Below are positions 1 through 12,222 of a DNA stretch of 29,617 nucleotides, piece after piece. The notes beneath the pieces were generated by a model that did not search any database, was not told the origin of the DNA, and was given only the letters and a program-made list of their open reading frames with translations. The DNA lies in the IMG/VR virus record IMGVR_UViG_3300042541_000229, positions 1 to 29,617 of that record, one strand, 5' to 3'. Origin of the DNA: a virus. Each line of letters starts with the position of its first letter. The first letter of the stretch is position 1. The translations under genes and the position numbers were made by a program.

Positions 1-1548
1 GCCACCTTGAGGAAGCGCTCCAGAAGATCCCCAAGGCATTGATCCTTGGTAACCTTGGGCAACTGGCATCTGCTGAACGTTAGGATCTGCATATTCAACA
101 ACAGATCCACCGTCTGCATAACCTCGCAGACCCGCTCCAGCACCTTGCATCATCATGCGCTCACGATCTGTAGGGTTAACACTTCCACCGTCCGCATATC
201 CTTGCATAGCCTGCAATCCTTGGCCTTGTAGCTGTGGCATTGGTTGGGCGGCATAAGGATCATTGTTGTATGGATCTTGATTTACAGGGCCACCATCAGC
301 CATCCTAACGTACCCACCCCTTGCAGCTGCAGGAACGGGCGTATACATAGGATCGCTCAAGAACTTAAACTCTCCACCGCCTGACTCAGCGTATTTGTTA
401 AGGTCGTCACCATACTGGTTGCGTGACTGGCTCATGGCGTACTGATCTAACGGCTGATCAAATGTTGCGTTATATCTGGAAAGGTCTGGTGCTCCAGATG
501 GCGCTCCAGATGGTGCTCCACCAGTTTCGCCAAATGCACCCAGCTTGTCTAAAGCTAGAATTCCAAGACCAGACTTGATTGGATTATCCATAACCCACTT
601 GGCGCCATCCCATAGCATATTGCCGGATGTCGCCCCTGCCTCTCCAGATGCACCCTTTGTTGTGGCGCTTGATATATCTCCTATAGCAGCCGCCCCATCT
701 GCCCCATAGCTTCTCTCTACAATTGAAGCTGGGACTTCTTGCGTCATGCTCATCATTTCTTTTACTGTCATCGGCGGATTCGCAGCCCCCTCTGCAGCAG
801 CCCCCTCTGCAGCAGCTGTGTTGGCTGATCTTGCAACATTCGTTACTGGGACAGATTCAATAGTCGCAACCGAAGGAAGTGACAGAGATGGGTCTGCTGA
901 CAATGATGCGGTTCTGCTATTCCTACCAACTTCTGCGCCAACATCCCTTCCAGCGTTTTTAAAAGCTGCTGTGGATGTGTCAAATGCTGCGCCAAGATCA
1001 GATGCTGCTGGAGCGCCAATCTCTAGGTTCTTAATAAAGGTTCCTGTTTTTGGATTTATTGTGCTGCCAAGATCTCCATAGAGAGAGTTTGCGAGGGGAT
1101 TAGTGACTCCGGGTTTAGCAACTTGCCCAAGATCCCCCCAAAGAGCCTTTTCTGAAGCAGTCATTGTCTTTCCTACAGTGCTGCCAAATGCTTTACCAGC
1201 AAGTGCGCCACCAGCATAACCAGTAGCGCCAGCTATCACACCAGACTTCAATGCATCCCCAAACTTCTCGCCCTCTGCCAAGCCTACGCCAGCATTCATC
1301 ACGCCAGACATTACGGAGCCAGCAATTGGGCCTACGCCGGGGATAAAGTACGGAGCTACTGTTGCAATAAACCTGATTGGATCATCAGCAATCGGCTTTA
1401 TCACGTCCTTATAGATGTGTTTGCCTGCATCCTCAAACCCATGAGCTAGGCTGTTGTCTATATGACCAAAGTCACCCTTAACTACGTCCTTAACTACGTT
1501 AACAACCGTCTTAACAACATCCTTTACCAAATGAACAATAACTGCCAT
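1..1548 (-). CDS. Partial Gly/Ala-rich virion-type protein with ADGG repeats
   Basis: The frame is open from an ATG at 1548 to the window edge, giving 516 codons without a stop, so the C-terminus is missing. The start has a good AGGGAG ribosome site and lies one base after the stop of the gene at 1550. The N-terminus (about residues 1-50) is rich in Val, Lys and Asp. A Gly/Ala-rich stretch follows (about 55-100, with motifs like PYFIPGVGPIAGSVMSG) that could be membrane-active. The middle is low-complexity Ala/Ser/Gly. The far end repeats a short motif: ADGGPV once and GYADGGSV twice, near positions 60-310. Such Gly-rich tails occur in virion or ejected proteins of uncultured aquatic phages. 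I do not recognise a named family; its place at the end of the tail cluster suggests a virion or ejection protein. Confidence 0.75.
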   Translation of the reverse strand, partial: MAVIVHLVKDVVKTVVNVVKDVVKGDFGHIDNSLAHGFEDAGKHIYKDVIKPIADDPIRFIATVAPYFIPGVGPIAGSVMSGVMNAGVGLAEGEKFGDALKSGVIAGATGYAGGALAGKAFGSTVGKTMTASEKALWGDLGQVAKPGVTNPLANSLYGDLGSTINPKTGTFIKNLEIGAPAASDLGAAFDTSTAAFKNAGRDVGAEVGRNSRTASLSADPSLSLPSVATIESVPVTNVARSANTAAAEGAAAEGAANPPMTVKEMMSMTQEVPASIVERSYGADGAAAIGDISSATTKGASGEAGATSGNMLWDGAKWVMDNPIKSGLGILALDKLGAFGETGGAPSGAPSGAPDLSRYNATFDQPLDQYAMSQSRNQYGDDLNKYAESGGGEFKFLSDPMYTPVPAAARGGYVRMADGGPVNQDPYNNDPYAAQPMPQLQGQGLQAMQGYADGGSVNPTDRERMMMQGAGAGLRGYADGGSVVEYADPNVQQMPVAQGYQGSMPWGSSGALPQGG

Positions 1549-1549
1549 T

Positions 1550-2005
1550 TTATTCTCCCTGTACTGGTGTTCTTGGCCCTAGAATCAGGGTTCCAATAAA
1601 TTGCCCATCGTCAGACTCTCCGATTTGATATCCCATATTCGGGCGCGGGGGGTTCTTGGCAAGTATCGTGAATAGGTTAATAAGCGACTGATCCTTGAAC
1701 TGAGTTCTGAGCGCCCAGTATCCTGAATTGTATGCGTCAACTATCCACTTTCTGGAGTTCTCAATATAGTTCTGAGGGGTGTCTGCATTTATTGCACGGA
1801 ATATTCCTGTGCCGGGGACTTCTTCAGATCCGTGAACTATAAATATGGTGTTCCCATATCTAAAGAACTTTGAGTCTGGCATCTGGGCCTCTCTGACAAA
1901 TGCGGCCAGAACCAACTCCATTGGAACCCCCTCATTTGCCATCTCTGCCGCAATCCGCATTAGATCCTCCACCACCAGCATCTGCTTTTTACTATCGACT
2001 AACAT
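1550..2005 (-). CDS. Unknown 151-aa protein downstream of the ketosynthase
   Basis: This 151-aa protein starts at an ATG three bases after the ketosynthase stop, so it is almost certainly on the same transcript. The N-terminal third is helical (residues about 8-42). The middle and end contain a NADTPQNYIENSRKW stretch, then an alternating pattern ending in MGYQIG and GTLILG. The later half faintly recalls GNAT-like proteins found near phage tail genes, but I see no clear acetyl-CoA loop. It shows no hot-dog dehydratase or ketoreductase motif, so I cannot link it to acyl chemistry. It could be a virion protein that simply follows the ACP/ketosynthase pair. Confidence 0.7.
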   Translation of the reverse strand: MLVDSKKQMLVVEDLMRIAAEMANEGVPMELVLAAFVREAQMPDSKFFRYGNTIFIVHGSEEVPGTGIFRAINADTPQNYIENSRKWIVDAYNSGYWALRTQFKDQSLINLFTILAKNPPRPNMGYQIGESDDGQFIGTLILGPRTPVQGE

Positions 2006-2008
2006 AAT

Positions 2009-3133
2009 TTAGACCCTCGTATCGAATATCGATGCTGCATAAATATTGCCCATTCCAGATGCTAAGCTTAATAGCAAGCCATCAGGGACACCAGACTCTT
2101 TCGACAAGAAAATATCGTCATCTTCCGTTCTATTTTTAATAGCTGGAATGATCCCCTTCTTGATGTCGTCAAGAATTAATCCTGTTTCAACCAAACTACT
2201 CGCGGCCAATGTATGCCCAATATGCTGCTTATATGATGTTGCTATGAAATCATCGAGGACTGTTGTGAGGGCGTTCCTCTCGGCCTTGTTATTGGTAAGC
2301 GTTCCAGTTCCATGCGTCTTCACCAGCTTAATGTCTTTTGCCTTCTTCTTGGCGAACTCAAGAGCCCCTGTAATAGCCCTCTGGTATCCCTGACCATCCT
2401 CTCTCTGTCCAATTGGGTTGGGGTTCTGCTCTGCCGAAATGTATGCGCTAAGAAGCTCAGCCTTTGGCTGAACAGCGTTCTTATTAACAGCGGTCTCGGT
2501 CTCAAATATCATAATCCCTGCCCCATGACCCAGAATAAACCCACAGTTCTTGCTATCAAATGCAGATGGAATTCCGCCCTGATCTTCAGATGTTGACAGT
2601 AACGATGCCTTCATCTGGCCGAAGTACTCTAGCGTTTGCTTAGAAGACTGATCCTCTGCTCCAACTATAATCACTCTATCGAACCCCAAGTTATCCATGA
2701 GGTTCTTCGCATCCATCATGCACTTAATCCCTGACGCACATGCACTGGCATCAGTCGTTACATAATCATATGCCTCAAACATAGCCGCCAGTCTTCCAGC
2801 GTATACGTTGGTCATTGTCAACATTCCAAGCTTGTAAACATAATCAAGCTCAGTCTGAACCTCTTTGTTCTTTGACTTGCCGCCAGCCCATCCCTGTGAC
2901 CCTGCCGCCAATAAGAATGCGGTCTTACCGTCCACCGGGTTGTCCTTCACATAATCAACAATCTCTTTTACAACTACCTTGTTCACCAGCTCATGCGGAA
3001 CATAAGACAGGCCGGACTGAACCCTTGAGAATACCTCTGGTATCCAATGCATCCTCTGTGGATAAGTGATATTTTCTATTAACCTTGTCTCTGTTGTGCA
3101 GACCGTTTTGTATTGAGTTAAGTATGTTTTCAT
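2009..3133 (-). CDS. Beta-ketoacyl-ACP synthase (condensing enzyme, FabF/KAS II-like)
   Basis: This predicted thiolase-fold condensing enzyme would join an acyl group held on its cysteine to malonyl-ACP, with loss of CO2. Counting from the ATG at 3133 it has 374 residues, slightly short of the usual ~410 for FabF. The catalytic set is present: Cys132 in TDASACASG, His274 in KTHGTGT, Lys302 and His307 in YKQHIGHTLAAS, and a Gly-rich C-terminal SGMGN in place of the usual GFGG-type loop. Keeping Cys132 argues against an inactive chain-length factor. A TTG 21 bases upstream would add seven residues. I prefer the ATG because it lies one base after the ACP stop, which suggests translational coupling. 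No ketoreductase, dehydratase or acyltransferase is nearby, so the cell would have to supply malonyl-ACP and any reduction. The enzyme class is clear; the role in a phage is inference. Confidence 0.9.
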   Translation of the reverse strand: MKTYLTQYKTVCTTETRLIENITYPQRMHWIPEVFSRVQSGLSYVPHELVNKVVVKEIVDYVKDNPVDGKTAFLLAAGSQGWAGGKSKNKEVQTELDYVYKLGMLTMTNVYAGRLAAMFEAYDYVTTDASACASGIKCMMDAKNLMDNLGFDRVIIVGAEDQSSKQTLEYFGQMKASLLSTSEDQGGIPSAFDSKNCGFILGHGAGIMIFETETAVNKNAVQPKAELLSAYISAEQNPNPIGQREDGQGYQRAITGALEFAKKKAKDIKLVKTHGTGTLTNNKAERNALTTVLDDFIATSYKQHIGHTLAASSLVETGLILDDIKKGIIPAIKNRTEDDDIFLSKESGVPDGLLLSLASGMGNIYAASIFDTRV

Positions 3134-3134
3134 A

Positions 3135-3419
3135 CTAAAGCTTAATACTCGCAATCGCCTCGTCTATCGTCTTCTGGTCGCTTGTCGCATTGGCCTCATA
3201 CATCTCAAAGAACTGCCGAGGCGTTGCTGGCATCAATGTCTTTGAAACCCCTTCTGAGACACCATATATCTCTGAAAAGTAAATGCTAAGCATGATCGCA
3301 TCAAGGCTATCTATTCCTAGATCGCCAAGCATTTCATCCAGCGTACTTGACTGTGAATCTTCTCTACTTGCGGGTTTTGCAGCTTTCACGATTTTGTTGA
3401 AAAGCTCTAACTTATCCAC
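3135..3419 (-). CDS. Acyl carrier protein
   Basis: This is a 94-aa acidic protein with the acyl carrier signature LGIDSLDAIML. Ser38 in the DSLD motif is the expected site for attachment of 4'-phosphopantetheine by a host transferase such as AcpS. The predicted pattern fits the four-helix ACP fold: helix 1 about residues 3-14, the recognition helix 2 from about 38, and a longer tail than the ~78 residues of E. coli AcpP. The start is GTG, supported by a GGGAGAAAG ribosome site. The stop lies one base before the ketosynthase ATG. Pairing with the ketosynthase strongly suggests the two proteins work together. A peptidyl carrier protein is a less likely alternative. Confidence 0.9.
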   Translation of the reverse strand: MDKLELFNKIVKAAKPASREDSQSSTLDEMLGDLGIDSLDAIMLSIYFSEIYGVSEGVSKTLMPATPRQFFEMYEANATSDQKTIDEAIASIKL

Positions 3420-3429
3420 AACTTTCTCC

Positions 3430-3657
3430 CTATGTCATAACTTGCGCGAATCGACTGGCCCATTCTCGCCAATCGGTAAAGCCCTTTGGATCGGGCGGGT
3501 TTTTCTGGCTAATTCCCGGCATTGTGCAAAAGACAACAGCCCATTCTTGCCATTTACTCTCATCTTCCAACTTCTCAATCGCTCCATAAACATTCAGATC
3601 GAGTGCGACCTGATCAGTCCAATCGAGCAATCCTATTATAACTGGTAGTGTGATCAA
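3430..3657 (-). CDS. Unknown 75-aa protein before the ACP gene
   Basis: This small protein is rich in Trp and acidic residues (WREWASRF near the end, KWQEWAVVF in the middle). It starts with TTG overlapping the TGA stop of the tail-hub gene upstream (TTGA), so its translation is probably coupled to that gene. It ends 10 bases before the ACP start and so sits between tail and acyl genes. I recognise no family. It may be a small virion or assembly protein. Confidence 0.65.
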   Translation of the reverse strand: MITLPVIIGLLDWTDQVALDLNVYGAIEKLEDESKWQEWAVVFCTMPGISQKNPPDPKGFTDWREWASRFAQVMT

Positions 3658-5300
3658 TTTGTATTTGTAGCGCCCAATACAGTTCCATCAGCCTCTTCCA
3701 TATGGGCAATTATCTGACCCATCTGATAGTCACCATTTACGGTGTTGGAGCTGAACCTGAACCTCATCTCTCTTCTAATGTCCTTGAAGTATACAACCTG
3801 ATCATATGGCGTAGCTGGATTATCTGAGAACGTCCTGATCTCTGACGGAATCTCTGCAGATCTAGCATTAGAGCGGCCAGTAACAGACACGCTCATGTCA
3901 CCAGACTGGACAAAGTCAGGCTCCAGCAGGTCACATCTCAACGACTTGGCATGGCCCTGAGTTACAAGGGCACTCATGTCTGAAGTCTCAAAGTATGACT
4001 CGATGGCGTTAAGGCGACTGATATCAATCTCGTTAACGCCAACCTCATGCTGCCAGCACTTAAAATTATCACCGAAATAGATAATCCGCACATCACCAGC
4101 TGGTGCGGTTGTGCGGATGTCGCTATTTGGGAGCTCTGTTATTCTGATGCCGGGATCAAGCCTAGATATGTTCTGTGCAGCGCCCATCAGGAATGGGGTG
4201 GCGTACTGAGTGGTGAACTCCCCAGCTGACCTGCCGCCATTTGGTAGAGCTGTGTCATACCAAGTGTTCTCACGCACATTATAGATAACAGCATGCGTAC
4301 ACTCTGTGGCCGCACCCCTTGGGTAGCACCACCATATCTCACCGTATCGCGTAACCTTGAAGGCAAATACCCGCTGAGCAGCTTCCCGGTTCAATCCATT
4401 GAAGAACCAGTTCAAGCTAAGATTATTCGGCAGATCCCGAACAACGCCATTGAACATGATGAACCTATCAGCGCCCACCCAGAAGTAAACGCCATCATAT
4501 TCAATAACGGACGCAGCCGACAGGATAGAGCTCTGAGCACTGATCGTGTCGAACTGGAAGGTTTGTGTTCCGCCAACAAACGACCCCCTAACTACCGCAT
4601 CCAGTGACCAGAATAGACCTGATGGTGCATTGCCGGGGCCACCTCGAAGTGGCAAGCCCCTGACTAGCTTCTGAGCTGCAATCCGGGCATTACCAGAACC
4701 CTCACCAGACATGTCTGCTGGGTTGCCGGGGGCTGACCACCCGATTGATCCATCTGCGCCAAATACTGTTAGATATGGGTGGAGTACGCATATCCCGCCA
4801 GAAGCATCCACACCCTCTGGGATAGCTAAGTCTATAAGGCGGTCGCCTGACCGAACATCACCATAAAATACTTGAGCTCCAGTGGTATTCGATAGGGCAG
4901 GATAGTTTGGCGCAACCTGTGCGATGATCTTGTTGCTTGGAACCAAGCTAATTGAGTCATACAGGACATCGAACTGCCACAGGTTGTTATCATTGAAGTT
5001 TAACGATGCCGGGGTACGATCCTCAGATCCGCCAGCATTTGCATTCTCATCCATCGTGATGCGCTGGACGTATGACGCGCTACCAGTATGCAAATAGGTA
5101 TATCCATTCTGTGTGAATGTCTTTATCCCGCGACTTATCTCGGCAATATAGTCAGTTACATTGCGATACCCGCTCATCTTACGGGGCAGCCCACGCTGGA
5201 ATCGAACCCACTGGCCGTCCACATAGTACTCGCCCTCAAATTTAGTCCCGTCCCGCTTGATCCCGGCAAGAGACTTAATGACTACTGGCGTTGTTGCCAC
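3654..5300 (-). CDS. Tail hub / packaged-DNA stabilisation protein (P22 gp10-like)
   Basis: This 548-aa protein starts with GTG, one base after the end of the previous gene. It is beta-rich, with repeated blade-like segments such as YFWVGADRFIMFNG, EIWWCYPRG and YNVRENTWYDTALPNGGRSAG. That is the pattern of the beta-propeller part of the short-tail hub proteins related to P22 gp10. The N-terminus (KSLAGIKRDGTKFEGEYYVDG) resembles the start of this class, in which a leading segment names the sampled path of the protein. In P22-like particles this protein plugs the portal below the gp4 adaptor. Its place downstream of two adaptor-type genes agrees with that. The assignment rests on the sequence pattern and context; a search would be needed to confirm it. 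Confidence 0.65.
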   Translation of the reverse strand: MATTPVVIKSLAGIKRDGTKFEGEYYVDGQWVRFQRGLPRKMSGYRNVTDYIAEISRGIKTFTQNGYTYLHTGSASYVQRITMDENANAGGSEDRTPASLNFNDNNLWQFDVLYDSISLVPSNKIIAQVAPNYPALSNTTGAQVFYGDVRSGDRLIDLAIPEGVDASGGICVLHPYLTVFGADGSIGWSAPGNPADMSGEGSGNARIAAQKLVRGLPLRGGPGNAPSGLFWSLDAVVRGSFVGGTQTFQFDTISAQSSILSAASVIEYDGVYFWVGADRFIMFNGVVRDLPNNLSLNWFFNGLNREAAQRVFAFKVTRYGEIWWCYPRGAATECTHAVIYNVRENTWYDTALPNGGRSAGEFTTQYATPFLMGAAQNISRLDPGIRITELPNSDIRTTAPAGDVRIIYFGDNFKCWQHEVGVNEIDISRLNAIESYFETSDMSALVTQGHAKSLRCDLLEPDFVQSGDMSVSVTGRSNARSAEIPSEIRTFSDNPATPYDQVVYFKDIRREMRFRFSSNTVNGDYQMGQIIAHMEEADGTVLGATNTN

Positions 5301-7093: not shown

Positions 7094-7813
7094 TTATGGG
7101 TGGATGACAGCTGCTTCACCAAATTCATCGATTCCGTCATTGATCACTGGGCTTGGAGCCATCTCCTTAACGGCCAATGAATTGATGAACTCTAAGAAAT
7201 TGCCAGAATACTTTTTAACGCCAATATGGTTGCAGGTCATGGTCGGGTCGATGTACACCTTCCCACCAAGATCCGCCCACTTGCGACAGAAGATATTATC
7301 CTCGCTTATCAGCTCGCCATCTATGATCTTAATATCAAATACCAGCCTGCTGGTCTTGCCTTGGCTGGTATATTCGCTACTAATCTCCCAGATAGACTGA
7401 ATGGCCTCTTTGGAGACCCGCAGGAAGCCTGTGCCGACTGATACAACCTCTATCAAGCCATTCTCCTCTACCTTCATGCCGCTATCTAGTATCTTTACGT
7501 TGAATGCGATCTCATCGCTCTTCTTAATTACCGTCCCGCCAACAACGTCAACAGGGTGATTGAGTAGCGTAAATATCCATTCTGGGTTCCACTCCTGATC
7601 GGCATCCATGAATATGATGTCATCACAGCCAGACTCTACTGCCATCTGGAACAGATCGTTCCGAGCTCTCTGCACCAGAGCGTCATAGCAGACCTGAATG
7701 GGGATGATCTCTATGTCAGGTGGGCACATCTTGATGGTGTTGACCAGTGAATGCAGGAACTCTGCATTTACCTTGCCATCGTAGCAGGGGGTTCCGAATA
7801 GGACTTTTCTCAT
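7094..7813 (-). CDS. Glycosyltransferase, GT-A fold
   Basis: This 239-aa protein reads as a nucleotide-sugar glycosyltransferase of the GT-A fold. Features seen are an N-terminal VLFGTPCYDG strand-loop, ALVQRARNDL at about 45-54, the metal-binding DAD (residues 70-72) in DIIFMDADQEW, the GTGFLRVSKEAI segment at about 127-138, and SEDNIFCRKW followed by IDPTMTCNHIG near the end, which fits the acceptor side of the site. It has no membrane segment, so it should be cytoplasmic. The start overlaps the stop of the giant fibre gene (ATGA), so the two are probably made together. It may modify the fibre or another virion protein, or the host surface. The target is inference. Confidence 0.8.
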   Translation of the reverse strand: MRKVLFGTPCYDGKVNAEFLHSLVNTIKMCPPDIEIIPIQVCYDALVQRARNDLFQMAVESGCDDIIFMDADQEWNPEWIFTLLNHPVDVVGGTVIKKSDEIAFNVKILDSGMKVEENGLIEVVSVGTGFLRVSKEAIQSIWEISSEYTSQGKTSRLVFDIKIIDGELISEDNIFCRKWADLGGKVYIDPTMTCNHIGVKKYSGNFLEFINSLAVKEMAPSPVINDGIDEFGEAAVIHP

Positions 7814-8163
7814 GGATGACTTGCCTTGTATGCCTCGAACTTAGCATCTAGTTCTTTAATTGCGTTGATTAATGGGGTTATTAGTGCTGCATTTCCCAGC
7901 CGCTGCGTCCCATCCTCGTCAGTACTCCATAGGTCGCTGAATGTATCCACACCAGCCTTATCGAGCGCAGCCTTTACATTCTGCGCTATAAGACCATGCA
8001 TTACTATCTCTGTATCCTTTACATTCTCTTCCTTGTACTGAGTAGTCAAATCCTCAGTGATTTCATTGGATGGCTTCCAGCGGAAGGTTACGGGCTCGAG
8101 CTCATTAATAAAATCAAGGCCAAGGGTATCTTTCCCGACAACGTTCTTGATACGCTCATCTGA
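7810..8163 (-). other. S74 intramolecular chaperone domain of the fibre
   Basis: This marks residues 1354-1470 of the fibre. It begins with Ser-Asp-Glu-Arg, the self-cleavage motif of S74 proteins such as phage endosialidases. LGL, ELEPVTFRW and GLIAQ follow, and then a helical C-terminal end (LITPLINAIKELDAKFEAY) that would form a trimeric coiled coil. It should be lost from the mature virion after folding. The cleavage itself is inferred from the family. Confidence 0.85.
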
Positions 8164-11100
8164 TGAGAATGTCCATACTGCACTTGCTGTGTACGGACAT
8201 GAGATACGAGCAGTACCGTTACCTATGATTACAGAGTTATCCACACCCTGCGTAAAGTTACGACCAATTGCAATACGGCCAGTCGCAGCAGCAGCAAGGG
8301 TGATTGCGTCACCAAATACTTGGTTGCTGGAACCAGTAGTCAATAGCAGTCCAGTGTTGTAACCAGCAATGGTATTTGTTCCGCCAGATGTAAGGACTAC
8401 GCCAGCATTCTGACCAATTGCTGTGTTATTAACACCAGTTGTGTTGGCAGTGAGTGCATTTACACCAACTGCTGTGTTCTGAATGCCAGTTGTATTGGAG
8501 AAGAGTGCGTTATATCCAACGGCTACGTTGTTAGTACCAATTGTGTTGGTTTGGAGTGCTTGATAGCCTAGAGCTGTATTCTGAACACCAGTTGTGTTGG
8601 CATTGAGTGCGGCAAATCCAACTGCTACGTTATTAATACCAATTGTGTTGGCACCGAGTGCGGCATTCCCAACTGCTACGTTACTAACACCAGTTGTGTT
8701 GTTCTGGAGTGCATTCTGACCAACTGCTATGTTGTTAGTGCCAATTGTGTTGGTAGTTAGGGCGTTAAATCCAACTGCAGTATTAGCAGTACCAGTTGTG
8801 TTGGCAACGAGTGCGCTACCTCCAACTGCTACGTTATTAGATCCAGCTGTGTTGGCATTGAGTGCGCTATTTCCAACTGCTGTGTTACTAGTACCACCTA
8901 TGTTGCCGCCGAGTGCGTTATTGCCAACTGCTACGTTGCCAACACCAGTTATGTTGGATAAGAGTGCATTCCGACCCACCGCTGTGTTATTGACACCAGT
9001 TGTGTTGGATTGGAGTGCGCCACCTCCAACTGCTATGTTGTTAGTGCCAATTGTGTTGAAAGAGAGTGCACTCACACCCAACGCTGTGTTGCCAATACCA
9101 GTTGTGTTGGAAGAGAGTGCAAAAACACCAAGAGCCGTGTTATTAGCGCCAGTTGTGTTAGAAGCTAGGGTTTGGAAGCCAACTGCAGTGTTGCTGCTGC
9201 CAGTGTTGATTTGGAGTGCTTGTGAACCTACTGCTGTGTTCTGAGTACCTACTGTGTTGGCAGAGAGCGTGTTAGATCCAACTGCAGTGTTACTACTGCC
9301 AGTTGTGTTAACAATGAGTGCGGAATATCCAACTGCTGTGTTATTAGTACCAATTGTGTTAGCCCTTAGAGCTTGGGAACCAACTGCTGTTAAGTTAGAT
9401 GCTGTGCTGTTTAGGAGTGCGGAATATCCAACTGCTGTGTTATTAGAATCAATTGTGTTGGCAACGAGTGTGCTCACACCAACTGCTGTGTTATTAACAC
9501 CAGTTGTGTTGAGATTGAGTGCAGCATATCCAACTGCTACGTTACTACCGCCAATTGTATTGGAGAAGAGTGCGGACGCGCCAACGGCTGTATTTCGGAT
9601 ACCAGTTGTGTTGGCGTTGAGTGTGAAACCCCCTATTGCTACGTTATCAACACCAATTGTGTTAGCAGTTAGCGACAAAGAACCCAAGGCTACGTTCCTA
9701 ACACCAGTTGTGTTGAGATTGAGTGCGGCATATCCAAGAGCTGTGTTATTAACACCAATTGTGTTGGATAAGAGTGCGTTGTTTCCAACCGCTGCGTTCT
9801 GAGTGCCAGTTGTGTTGGAGAAGAGTGCGCTATCGCCAACTGCTGTGTTGCTAGTACCAGTTGTATTGGCAGTTAGGGCGTTAAAGCCAATTGCCGTATT
9901 CTGGATACCAGTGGTGTTGTTCCTTAGAGCTTGGGAACCAATAGCTGTTAATTGGTCTACTGTGTTGTTTAGGAGTGCAGCCACACCTACTGCTGTGTTA
10001 TTGACACCAGTTATGTTGACTTGGAGTGCGCTCGTACCTACTGCTACGTTACTAGAGCCAGTTGTGTTGGCAGCTAAGGCGGTATATCCAACTGCTGTGT
10101 TGTTAGTACCAATTGTGTTGAGTTGCATTGCGCCATATCCAACTGATGTATTCTGAGATCCAGTTGTATTGGTAGCGAGTGCGGCATTCCCAAGAGCTGT
10201 GTTATTAACACCAGTTGTGTTGAGATTGAGTGCGGCATTTCCAACTGCTGTGTTGGCAGCACCAATTGTGTTAGAAGCGAGTGCGGCATAGCCAACTGCT
10301 GTGTTATTGACACCAGTTGTGTTGGCATTTAGTGCGGAAACTCCAACCGCTGCGTTATTGGCACCAGTTGTGTTAAGAGCGAGTGCGCCATTTCCAACTG
10401 CTGTGTTGGCAGTGCCAATTGTGTTGACAGCGAGTGCAGAAACTCCAACTGCTGTATTCTGAGTACCAGTTGTGTTGGAAGTGAGTGCGGAAAGTCCAAC
10501 TGCTACGTTGTTAGTACCAGTTGTGTTGGCATTGAGTGCGGTATTTCCAACTGCAGTGTTACTACTGCCAGTTGTGTTGTTAGCGAGTGCGCCCCGACCC
10601 ATTGCTACGTTATCAACGCCAGTTGTGTTGGATAAGAGTGCGTTATATCCCACCGCTGTGTTATTGACACCAGTTGAGTTGGTAGAGAGTGCGCCACCTC
10701 CAACTGCTATATTCTGGACACCAGTTGAGTTGGATAAGAGTGCGCCACTTCCAACTGCTGTGTTACTAGTACCAGTTGTGTTGGCAGCTAAGGCGGTATA
10801 TCCAACGGCTGTGTTGTTAGTACCAATTGTGTTAGCGAGGAGTGCGGTATACCCAAGAGCTGTATTCTGAACACCTGTTGTGTTAGCAGTTAGGGCGTTA
10901 TATCCAACTGCTGTTGAGTTGTCTACTGTAGAAGCTGCGAGTGCACTACGACCAACTGCTACGTTACCAGAGCCAATGATGTTCGCTGCGAGTGTACTAC
11001 GACCAACTGCTGTGTTCTGAATGCCAGTTGTATTGGAGAAGAGTGCGCTATCGCCAACTGCAGTGTTACTAATACCAGTTGTGTTGGAAGTGAGTGCGTT

Positions 11101-12222
11101 GTATCCAACTGCTGAGTTATTAGTACCAGTTGTGTTGTTTAGGAGTGTACTACGACCAACTGCTGTGTTCTGAGTACCAATTGTGTTGGTAGCGAGTGCA
11201 TTTACACCAACTGCTGTGTTGTTAGTACCAGTTGTGTTGGCTTGGAGTGTGCTAGTTCCAACTGCTGTGTTCTGAGTGCCAGTTGTGTTGGCAGTTAGGG
11301 CAAGATAGCCAAGAGCTGTGTTAGCAGTACCAGCTGTGTTGGCCTTTAGAGCTTGGAAGCCAATGGCTGTTAAGCTATCTACTGTAGAGACGTTAAGTGC
11401 TTGCAAACCCACTGCTACGTTAAAGGAACCTGTTGTGTTGCCCCCGAGTGTGCCATTCCCAAGAGCCGTGTTCTGGATACCAGTTGTGTTGGAAGCGAGT
11501 GCGGCATTACCAACTGCTGTGTTGTTGAAACCAGTTGTGTTGGATTGGAGTGTGGCATATCCAAGAGCAGTGTTGTTAATGCCAGTTGTGTTGGAAGCGA
11601 GTGCGGCATTACCAACTGCTGTGTTATTAATACCAGTTGTGTTGAGATTGAGTGCGGCAGATCCAACGGCTGTGTTACTAACACCAGTTGCGTTGGTAGT
11701 GAGTGCGCCATATCCAAGAGCTGTGTTGTTAGTGCCAATTGTGTTTGAGTCGAGTGCAGTCGATCCTATAGCAATGTTGGTACTTACATTCCCGCCGCCC
11801 AATCCTATGCTTACTGTATTTATGCTCGCATCGCCGCCAGTAACTTCAAGCTTGAACGCGCCGCTAGGGGTGTTGCCAATCCCAACATTGCCACTCGGAT
11901 CAATAACAAATGGGGTGACATCTGGATTTGCTGAGTCTTCTACAACAAATGAATTGCCCGCACCCGTATTTGTAATCCTGACACCACCGCCAGCACCAGT
12001 CTGTGTGATCGTTACGGCATTGTGCGTGGCATCGTTGACATTGATGACAACAGGGGTCTCAAAAAGTGGCCCACTCGCCACCAGAATAACGTTGCCAACA
12101 CTATCAAGACTGTAGAGCTTGTTGTCTGTGACGTTGATCGCCAACTCGCCCTGAACCAATTGCCCTGCTGATGGGGCGATTCCGGGTGCTGCATTGTTCT
12201 TTGTGATAATTGTGACTGCCAT
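7810..12222 (-). CDS. Giant repetitive tail fibre with C-terminal S74 chaperone
   Basis: This 1470-aa virion fibre is the largest gene in the window. Residues 1-148 form an attachment region with a GELAINVTDNKLY motif and a SGNVGIGNTP segment typical of fibre N-termini. Residues 149-1265 are about 66 copies of a 17-residue repeat, consensus NTAVGxxALxxNTTGxN, probably a trimeric YadA-like beta-roll. Then come degenerate copies, and from residue 1354 an S74-type intramolecular chaperone: SDERIK, LGLDFINELEPVTFRWKP, HGLIAQNV. In this family the chaperone trimerises the fibre and then cuts itself off just before the SD motif. The protein probably recognises the host surface. The start has a weak GAGG site; the gene precedes the glycosyltransferase with a 4-base overlap. 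Confidence 0.9.
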   Translation of the reverse strand: MAVTIITKNNAAPGIAPSAGQLVQGELAINVTDNKLYSLDSVGNVILVASGPLFETPVVINVNDATHNAVTITQTGAGGGVRITNTGAGNSFVVEDSANPDVTPFVIDPSGNVGIGNTPSGAFKLEVTGGDASINTVSIGLGGGNVSTNIAIGSTALDSNTIGTNNTALGYGALTTNATGVSNTAVGSAALNLNTTGINNTAVGNAALASNTTGINNTALGYATLQSNTTGFNNTAVGNAALASNTTGIQNTALGNGTLGGNTTGSFNVAVGLQALNVSTVDSLTAIGFQALKANTAGTANTALGYLALTANTTGTQNTAVGTSTLQANTTGTNNTAVGVNALATNTIGTQNTAVGRSTLLNNTTGTNNSAVGYNALTSNTTGISNTAVGDSALFSNTTGIQNTAVGRSTLAANIIGSGNVAVGRSALAASTVDNSTAVGYNALTANTTGVQNTALGYTALLANTIGTNNTAVGYTALAANTTGTSNTAVGSGALLSNSTGVQNIAVGGGALSTNSTGVNNTAVGYNALLSNTTGVDNVAMGRGALANNTTGSSNTAVGNTALNANTTGTNNVAVGLSALTSNTTGTQNTAVGVSALAVNTIGTANTAVGNGALALNTTGANNAAVGVSALNANTTGVNNTAVGYAALASNTIGAANTAVGNAALNLNTTGVNNTALGNAALATNTTGSQNTSVGYGAMQLNTIGTNNTAVGYTALAANTTGSSNVAVGTSALQVNITGVNNTAVGVAALLNNTVDQLTAIGSQALRNNTTGIQNTAIGFNALTANTTGTSNTAVGDSALFSNTTGTQNAAVGNNALLSNTIGVNNTALGYAALNLNTTGVRNVALGSLSLTANTIGVDNVAIGGFTLNANTTGIRNTAVGASALFSNTIGGSNVAVGYAALNLNTTGVNNTAVGVSTLVANTIDSNNTAVGYSALLNSTASNLTAVGSQALRANTIGTNNTAVGYSALIVNTTGSSNTAVGSNTLSANTVGTQNTAVGSQALQINTGSSNTAVGFQTLASNTTGANNTALGVFALSSNTTGIGNTALGVSALSFNTIGTNNIAVGGGALQSNTTGVNNTAVGRNALLSNITGVGNVAVGNNALGGNIGGTSNTAVGNSALNANTAGSNNVAVGGSALVANTTGTANTAVGFNALTTNTIGTNNIAVGQNALQNNTTGVSNVAVGNAALGANTIGINNVAVGFAALNANTTGVQNTALGYQALQTNTIGTNNVAVGYNALFSNTTGIQNTAVGVNALTANTTGVNNTAIGQNAGVVLTSGGTNTIAGYNTGLLLTTGSSNQVFGDAITLAAAATGRIAIGRNFTQGVDNSVIIGNGTARISCPYTASAVWTFSSDERIKNVVGKDTLGLDFINELEPVTFRWKPSNEITEDLTTQYKEENVKDTEIVMHGLIAQNVKAALDKAGVDTFSDLWSTDEDGTQRLGNAALITPLINAIKELDAKFEAYKASHP
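8428..11778 (-). repeat. About 66 tandem 51-bp units encoding 17-residue fibre repeats
   Basis: I counted 66 consecutive in-frame units starting at residue 149 of the fibre. Most are 51 bp (17 residues); a few are 48 bp (16 residues). Positions NTA-VG, AL and NTTG are nearly fixed while the two residues after VG and those after AL vary. Some units break the pattern with VD or AS near the end followed by a unit lacking the first Asn (STVDSL-TAIGFQAL, STVDNS-TAVGYNAL, TVDQL-TAIGSQAL, TASNL-TAVGSQAL). On the plus strand the array creates long proline/valine-rich open frames that are only antisense shadows. Confidence 0.9.

What the first reader, a model, noticed from the sequence alone, without database searches (positions are those of the whole stretch)
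2009..3419. Phage-encoded acyl carrier protein and ketosynthase pair in the virion operon
Seen: an ACP with GIDSLD and the phosphopantetheine Ser38, then one base later a ketosynthase with Cys132, His274, Lys302 and His307. Known: these are the partners of Claisen condensation in fatty acid and polyketide synthesis. Inference: this pair sits at the end of the tail and fibre genes, not among host-like metabolic genes, and there is no ketoreductase or acyltransferase. It may redirect host malonyl-ACP, produce an unusual acyl chain for an envelope or virion modification, or hold an acyl group as a virion part. I do not know of a described phage system with this arrangement, but I could not search.
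Basis: partly seen in the sequence, partly recalled or inferred. Interest (0 to 1): 0.87.

Follow-up and report, generated by a model that had tools for sequence, protein, structure and literature searches.

The report
Phage acyl-carrier, ketosynthase and acyltransferase cassette
Many uncultured aquatic bacterial viruses carry a compact set of three genes that looks able to build a fatty acyl chain and attach it to something, most likely the viral protein that opens the host membrane; this set appears to be found only in viruses and its function is untested.

Summary
The ACP-ketosynthase (KS) pair is real and at the stated place, with all four KS catalytic residues and the ACP serine intact. 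ACP is directly upstream in 73/73 testable loci of a pattern-based sample, and GNAT directly downstream in most. In the one lineage where ACP-KS moved to the replication module, GNAT is still present in all three records that reach its site. ACP-GNAT without KS and GNAT alone also occur. GNAT directly precedes a large virion protein with a small-residue, membrane-like N-terminus, and lacks the CoA-binding loop, like ACP-using toxin acyltransferases. Best reading: a dedicated acyl-ACP pathway that acylates a virion or ejection protein. Enzyme module likely (about 0.75); substrate inferred (about 0.45). One divergent phage has ACP-KS without this GNAT. I found no description in the open papers searched.

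The parts
3135..3419 (-). Phage acyl carrier protein (94 aa), phosphopantetheine site S38 in GIDSLD
   Evidence: D37-S38 and D40 invariant in 38 homologues; directly upstream of KS in 73/73 testable loci of a pattern sample
2009..3133 (-). Beta-ketoacyl (keto)synthase (374 aa), catalytic C132, H274, K302, H307
   Evidence: Pfam PF00109/PF02801 over cut-off; phrog_35856 E 3e-39, function unknown; AlphaFold pLDDT 90 and FabF fold; catalytic residues invariant in 43 homologues; viral clade separate from cellular KSs
1550..2005 (-). GNAT-fold N-acyltransferase (151 aa), the missed third member; CoA-binding Q/RxxGxG/A loop replaced by N-x-D-T-x-x-N
   Evidence: No Pfam/PHROG hit; AlphaFold pLDDT 90.5; the listed Foldseek PDB hits are GNAT-fold acyltransferases; motif check; co-occurrence
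1..1548 (-). Candidate acyl acceptor: large virion/ejection-type protein, cut by the window end (710 aa in the near-identical phage L001); N-terminus MAVIV and hydrophobic glycine-rich stretches
   Evidence: Directly follows the GNAT gene. Role inferred from position and N-terminus only
3654..5300 (-). P22 gp10-like tail/nozzle protein (phrog_3287), upstream neighbour that defines the usual location
   Evidence: homologue annotated 'phage stabilization protein' in MW202545.1
3430..3657 (-). Small protein (75 aa) between gp10-like and ACP; replaced by unrelated small or knob-like proteins in other phages, so not part of the module

Best explanation
This is a phage-encoded acyl-ACP pathway. Host AcpS loads phosphopantetheine onto the phage ACP (no AcpS gene was found in the phage records). 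The KS condenses host-derived acyl and malonyl units to give a beta-ketoacyl-ACP, perhaps reduced by host FabG. The adjacent GNAT-fold enzyme transfers that acyl group from ACP, not CoA, to an amine. The most likely acceptor is the large virion protein encoded immediately downstream: its N-terminus (or a lysine) would be lipidated so that it can enter the host membrane during genome ejection, in the way HlyC or CdiC acylate the protein encoded beside them. Shown: the three genes, intact catalytic residues, GNAT fold, missing CoA loop, co-occurrence pattern. Inferred: enzyme activity, ACP as donor, the acceptor and the purpose.
For: (1) KS and ACP active sites are invariant across 43 and 38 diverse viral homologues. 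(2) The third gene has a GNAT fold; the listed hits include the AHL synthase TofI, whose class uses acyl-ACP (general knowledge). (3) The CoA-pyrophosphate motif Q/RxxGxG/A is absent at the b4-a3 loop in all 25 aligned members. Lack of CoA-contacting elements is what sets the ACP-using toxin acyltransferase ApxIC apart from other GNATs (PMC8339906). (4) Nested presence: ACP directly upstream of KS in 73/73 testable loci; of 104 loci fetched by GNAT, 58 have ACP+KS, 18 have ACP directly before GNAT without KS, 28 have neither locally. KS presence changes about 10 times on the GNAT tree, at least 5 forced by well-supported branches. (5) When ACP-KS moved to the replication module, GNAT stayed before the large virion protein: records G002, G339, G340. 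(6) Of 50,697 phage records, only one has the KS family at full length, and it is the only one with this GNAT. (7) The protein after GNAT starts within -7 to +7 nt in all 101 distinct cases, with S/A/G/P at position 2 in 97/101 (background 59%) and an acidic amphipathic N-terminus. (8) hlyC/cdiC-like precedent: the acyltransferase gene lies next to its protein substrate and uses acyl-ACP (PMC8510554).
Against: No biochemistry. The GNAT is also found without ACP and KS, so its basic function may need neither. One divergent phage (G341, 56.6 kb) has ACP and KS but no GNAT of this family. The GNAT is not a TAAT by sequence: no HlyC-family Pfam hit, and its invariant D75 and near-invariant H58 do not have TAAT spacing. 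The acceptor's N-terminal motif is the same in phages with and without ACP/KS, so it does not track the pathway. GNAT-fold or GNAT-annotated proteins occur in other podoviruses (PMC6918029).
Confidence: 0.48

Rival explanations
1. Host fatty-acid synthesis takeover: ACP and KS act as auxiliary metabolic genes that divert or boost host acyl-ACP for membrane change; the GNAT is a separate gene that merely has a fixed place in podovirus virion operons.
For: The pair moves as a unit to the replication module. This GNAT and GNAT-like proteins occur in phages without ACP/KS. fabF-type genes are reported among viral metabolic genes (PMC10653327; PMC8224337).
Against: The KS is not recently host-derived: it forms one viral clade with a long separating branch and cellular KSs score 92 bits or less. 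No FabG-type reductase or AcpS goes with it. ACP alone joins GNAT in 18 loci, which this view does not predict.
Confidence: 0.22
2. Small-molecule or lipid product: ACP, KS and GNAT make an N-acylated small molecule (acyl-homoserine-lactone-like, N-acyl amino acid or aminolipid) rather than acylating a virion protein.
For: GNAT enzymes that take acyl from ACP include AHL synthases (TofI is among the fold hits). A KS without reductase would give 3-oxoacyl-ACP, which LuxI-type enzymes use (general knowledge).
Against: The GNAT lies directly before the large virion protein, even when ACP-KS is about 20 kb away. No AHL synthase family hit.
Confidence: 0.15
3. Non-enzymatic virion parts or relics: ACP, KS and GNAT folds kept as structural or chaperone proteins of the tail/ejection assembly.
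For: Usual position among virion genes.
Against: Active-site residues invariant. The pair is found in the replication module in one lineage. KS presence varies repeatedly while the virion genes stay.
Confidence: 0.07

Closest known systems
Toxin-activating acyltransferases HlyC/ApxIC and CdiC (TAAT family)
   Same: GNAT fold without the CoA-contacting elements; acyl-ACP as donor (here inferred); gene next to a large membrane-acting protein (PMC8339906, PMC8510554).
   Different: No sequence match to the family; TAATs borrow the host ACP, whereas here dedicated ACP and KS genes accompany it; substrate is probably a phage virion protein.
FabF / KAS II and type II PKS ketosynthases
   Same: Fold and Cys-His-His-Lys catalytic set.
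   Different: About 35% identity or less to sampled cellular KSs, separate clade; FabF model score 115.7 against a cut-off of 493.75; different N-terminal region and C-terminal loop (GMGN where FabF has GFGG, the latter from general knowledge).
Solo phage acyl carrier proteins (Erythrobacter phage vB_EliS-R6L, Alteromonas phage R22Y) and the KS of phage MW202545.1
   Same: Phage ACPs have been reported, function unclear (PMC5463345, PMC11705849). MW202545.1 holds the same ACP-KS-GNAT order, with KS annotated and ACP/GNAT called hypothetical.
   Different: No earlier report linking ACP, KS and a GNAT was found in the papers searched.
Roseobacter prophage fabG-acpP-fabF
   Same: acpP next to fabF in regions called prophage (PMC8224337).
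   Different: That order is the ordinary bacterial fab operon; here there is no fabG and the KS is a distinct viral clade.

Membership tests
Beta-ketoacyl-ACP synthase II (FabF) | Thiolase fold with catalytic Cys, two His and Lys | tested here: met
   C132, H274, H307, K302 invariant in 43 homologues; fold match
Beta-ketoacyl-ACP synthase II (FabF) | Curated score of the NCBIfam equivalog TIGR03150 | tested here: not met
   115.7 bits against 493.75
Beta-ketoacyl-ACP synthase II (FabF) | Groups with cellular KSs on a tree | tested here: not met
   18 viral KSs form one side of a fully supported, long branch against 17 cellular KSs
Beta-ketoacyl-ACP synthase II (FabF) | Condensation of acyl-KS with malonyl-ACP | not testable with these tools
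   Needs in vitro assay
Acyl carrier protein (PF00550) | DSL phosphopantetheine site | tested here: met
   D37-S38 and D40 invariant in 38 sequences, L39 in at least 90%
Acyl carrier protein (PF00550) | Pfam gathering score | tested here: not met
   15.9 bits against 20.8
GNAT superfamily | GNAT fold and strand/helix order | tested here: met
   AlphaFold pLDDT 90.5; listed Foldseek hits are GNAT-fold enzymes, best E 1.7e-4, TM up to 0.59
GNAT superfamily | CoA-binding Q/RxxGxG/A motif between b4 and a3 | tested here: not met
   Absent at that place in all 25
Toxin-activating acyltransferase (HlyC/CdiC) | Sequence family match | tested here: not met
   No hit among 25 members up to E 1
Toxin-activating acyltransferase (HlyC/CdiC) | Catalytic His/Asp dyad | tested here: inconclusive
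   D75 invariant and H58 in at least 90%, but spacing unlike CdiC H37/D107
Toxin-activating acyltransferase (HlyC/CdiC) | Acyl-ACP is the donor | not testable with these tools
   Supported only indirectly by ACP adjacency and loop loss
Toxin-activating acyltransferase (HlyC/CdiC) | Gene adjacent to the large protein it modifies | tested here: inconclusive
   Adjacency is shown, modification is not

The most novel reading that the evidence does not exclude
A virus-only lipidation system: phages carry their own ACP, ketosynthase and ACP-dependent GNAT to make a special acyl chain and attach it to the N-terminus (or a lysine) of a virion ejection protein, so that the particle delivers a lipidated membrane-entry protein into the next host.
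Probability: 0.38. Interest if true: 0.92.

Novelty: new variant of a known kind. Interest (0 to 1): 0.74.

Why it matters
If right, it would be a dedicated, virus-encoded protein lipidation pathway in tailed phages, bearing on how short-tailed phages get ejection proteins into the cell envelope. It would explain an 'unknown function' family (phrog_35856) that is common in uncultured aquatic viruses, and give a KS clade with no close cellular relative found so far. It would also show that phage ACP and fabF-like genes counted as auxiliary metabolic genes may serve virion assembly rather than host lipid metabolism. The claim is directly testable with four small genes or gene fragments in a laboratory E. 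coli strain.

Tried and rejected
Virion-structural role for ACP/KS: rejected as the main reading, since the pair is relocated to the replication module in one lineage and its active sites are invariant. My first impression that the relocated lineage is an unrelated phage was wrong: longer records share capsid, portal, terminase and gp10 with the window. Recent capture from host FabF: rejected by the tree, by scores, and by a single full-length hit in the cellular collection, a phage-like contig in a Balneolaceae MAG. KS-like hits in unannotated 'Listeria/Enterococcus/Staphylococcus phage' records (23-31% identity) look like host DNA and were not used. Hidden ACP in GNAT-only loci: none seen. 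Defence-system match: none. The c11 gene after KS in the relocated lineage is not a GNAT homologue. The 582 candidates were not checked beyond the best 80.

Full report
Observation. The window is a 29.6-kb IMG/VR virus fragment. ACP (3135-3419) and KS (2009-3133), both on the minus strand and one base apart, are as described: S38 in GIDSLD; C132, H274, K302, H307. KS passes both Pfam ketoacyl-synthase cut-offs; ACP alone is below the PF00550 cut-off. The window phage has P22-like parts: gp4/SU10-type adaptor, gp10-like protein and a portal of phrog_1216, and a Terminase_6 large subunit.

A virus-only family. In 50,697 phage records only MW202545.1 (Manatee Spring, 57 kb, circular) holds a full-length relative, 47% identical, in the same order. 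In 84,980 bacterial and archaeal genomes the peptide scan found one full-length relative, a phage-like contig in a Balneolaceae MAG. A profile search of 297 genomes of that phylum found only the same contig. Ordinary cellular KSs score 92 bits or less with the family profile against 287-675 for viral members, the lowest being truncated or the divergent G341. On a tree 18 viral-family and 17 cellular KSs split on one fully supported, long branch. The scans use conserved peptides, so diverged cellular members could be missed.

ACP is part of the module. Every viral KS locus in the first sets has an ACP ORF just upstream. In the pattern-based sample, ACP is directly upstream in all 73 loci where upstream sequence exists. 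D37-S38 and D40 are invariant in 38 sequences; the KS catalytic residues are invariant in 43.

The missed third gene. The usual order is gp10-like, small or knob gene, ACP, KS, c3 (about 150 aa), then a large protein. c3 (window 1550-2005) matches nothing significant in Pfam or PHROGs. I suspected a GNAT from its sequence before folding it (note). The AlphaFold model (pLDDT 90.5) shows the GNAT order of helices and strands, and the listed Foldseek PDB hits are GNAT-fold acyltransferases (RimI, SpeG, YncA, the AHL synthase TofI and others). Where GNATs bind CoA pyrophosphate with Q/RxxGxG/A, this family has N-x-D-T-x-x-N and no such motif. A review states that the toxin acyltransferase ApxIC differs from other GNATs by lacking the CoA-contacting elements, explaining why its family uses acyl-ACP (PMC8339906).

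Co-occurrence. Of 104 loci fetched by c3, 58 have ACP and KS upstream, 18 have ACP directly before c3 but no KS, and 28 have neither locally. Whole-record searches of 15 of the loci without local KS (records up to 62 kb) found no KS in 14 and ACP in 8; the fifteenth is G002, where KS is unlinked. In the neither class the gene before c3 is usually a knob or tail-type gene, with no ACP motif nearby. On the c3 tree KS presence changes about 10 times, at least 5 forced by supported branches. In one lineage ACP-KS sits between an SNF2 helicase and replication genes. Its longer records share portal, capsid and gp10 with the window. In all three of those records that reach the gp10/large-protein site, c3 is there, unlinked (G002, G339, G340). 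Records of this lineage without c3 are short or end before that site as far as inspected (G005, first 20 kb of G338). One exception to the nested pattern is known: G341, an SU10-portal phage, has a divergent KS, an ACP and a DUF2269 membrane protein but no c3.

The likely acceptor. The gene after c3 starts within -7 to +7 nt of the c3 stop in all 101 distinct cases. It encodes a large protein with S, A, G or P at position 2 in 97/101 (59% in other long ORFs of the same loci), then hydrophobic residues and an acidic amphipathic stretch averaging about 11 D/E, 1.7 K and 0.2 R in 60 residues in the full-cassette class; 36/101 have no lysine there. It lies where P22-like phages keep ejection proteins (inference from gene order). 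The motif also occurs in phages with c3 alone, so it does not by itself prove acylation by this pathway.

Mechanism. No AcpS and no FabG-type reductase were found in 13 large records, though the same searches ring in control genomes. So the ACP would be charged by the host enzyme, and the KS product would be beta-ketoacyl-ACP unless host FabG reduces it. The likeliest use is transfer by the adjacent GNAT to an amine, most likely on the downstream virion protein. HlyC and CdiC are precedents: acyltransferases using acyl-ACP, encoded beside the protein they lipidate (PMC8510554). Membership in that family is not claimed: there is no sequence match and the dyad spacing differs.

Literature. Solo phage ACPs, prophage fabG-acpP-fabF and virome fabF genes are reported. 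I found no report of an ACP-KS-GNAT phage module in the open-access library. Subscription papers and preprints were not searchable.

Confidence. Real three-gene enzyme module: about 0.75. Acyl-ACP-dependent transfer by the GNAT: about 0.6. Virion protein as acceptor: about 0.45.

Noticed in passing
7810-12222: A 1470-aa fibre made of dozens of about 14-residue repeats (NTTGxxNTAVGxxAL), followed by a C-terminal part that looks like a fibre chaperone domain; copies in near-identical phages align with gaps, suggesting different repeat numbers.
   Followed up: no
7094-7813: Glycosyltransferase-like protein (phrog_1574; PF00535 below cut-off) inside the tail operon, next to the fibre gene.
   Followed up: no
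L258 6193-7963 (record G341): A divergent ACP - DUF2269 membrane protein - KS arrangement directly before an SU10-type portal, without the GNAT; a possible second, membrane-linked form of the module.
   Followed up: partly
L016 17717-19095 (MW202545.1): The public annotation starts KS about 50 residues late (18151 instead of 17995) and leaves ACP and the GNAT as hypothetical proteins.
   Followed up: yes
L007 7643-7942 and homologues: A 100-aa protein (RLSDEDxDPIEQD ... VTEKYWRYHFAKG, HTH-like) overlapping the KS stop codon in the replication-located lineage; unknown family.
   Followed up: no
L092 (Balneolaceae MAG contig JAGYJQ010000016.1): The only full-length relative in the bacterial/archaeal genome collection lies on a phage-like contig, a weak hint at a Balneolota host.
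   Followed up: partly
phage records OR846837, OR848561, PQ520154 and others: Unannotated 'phage' records with ordinary FabF-like matches, probably host DNA contamination.
   Followed up: no
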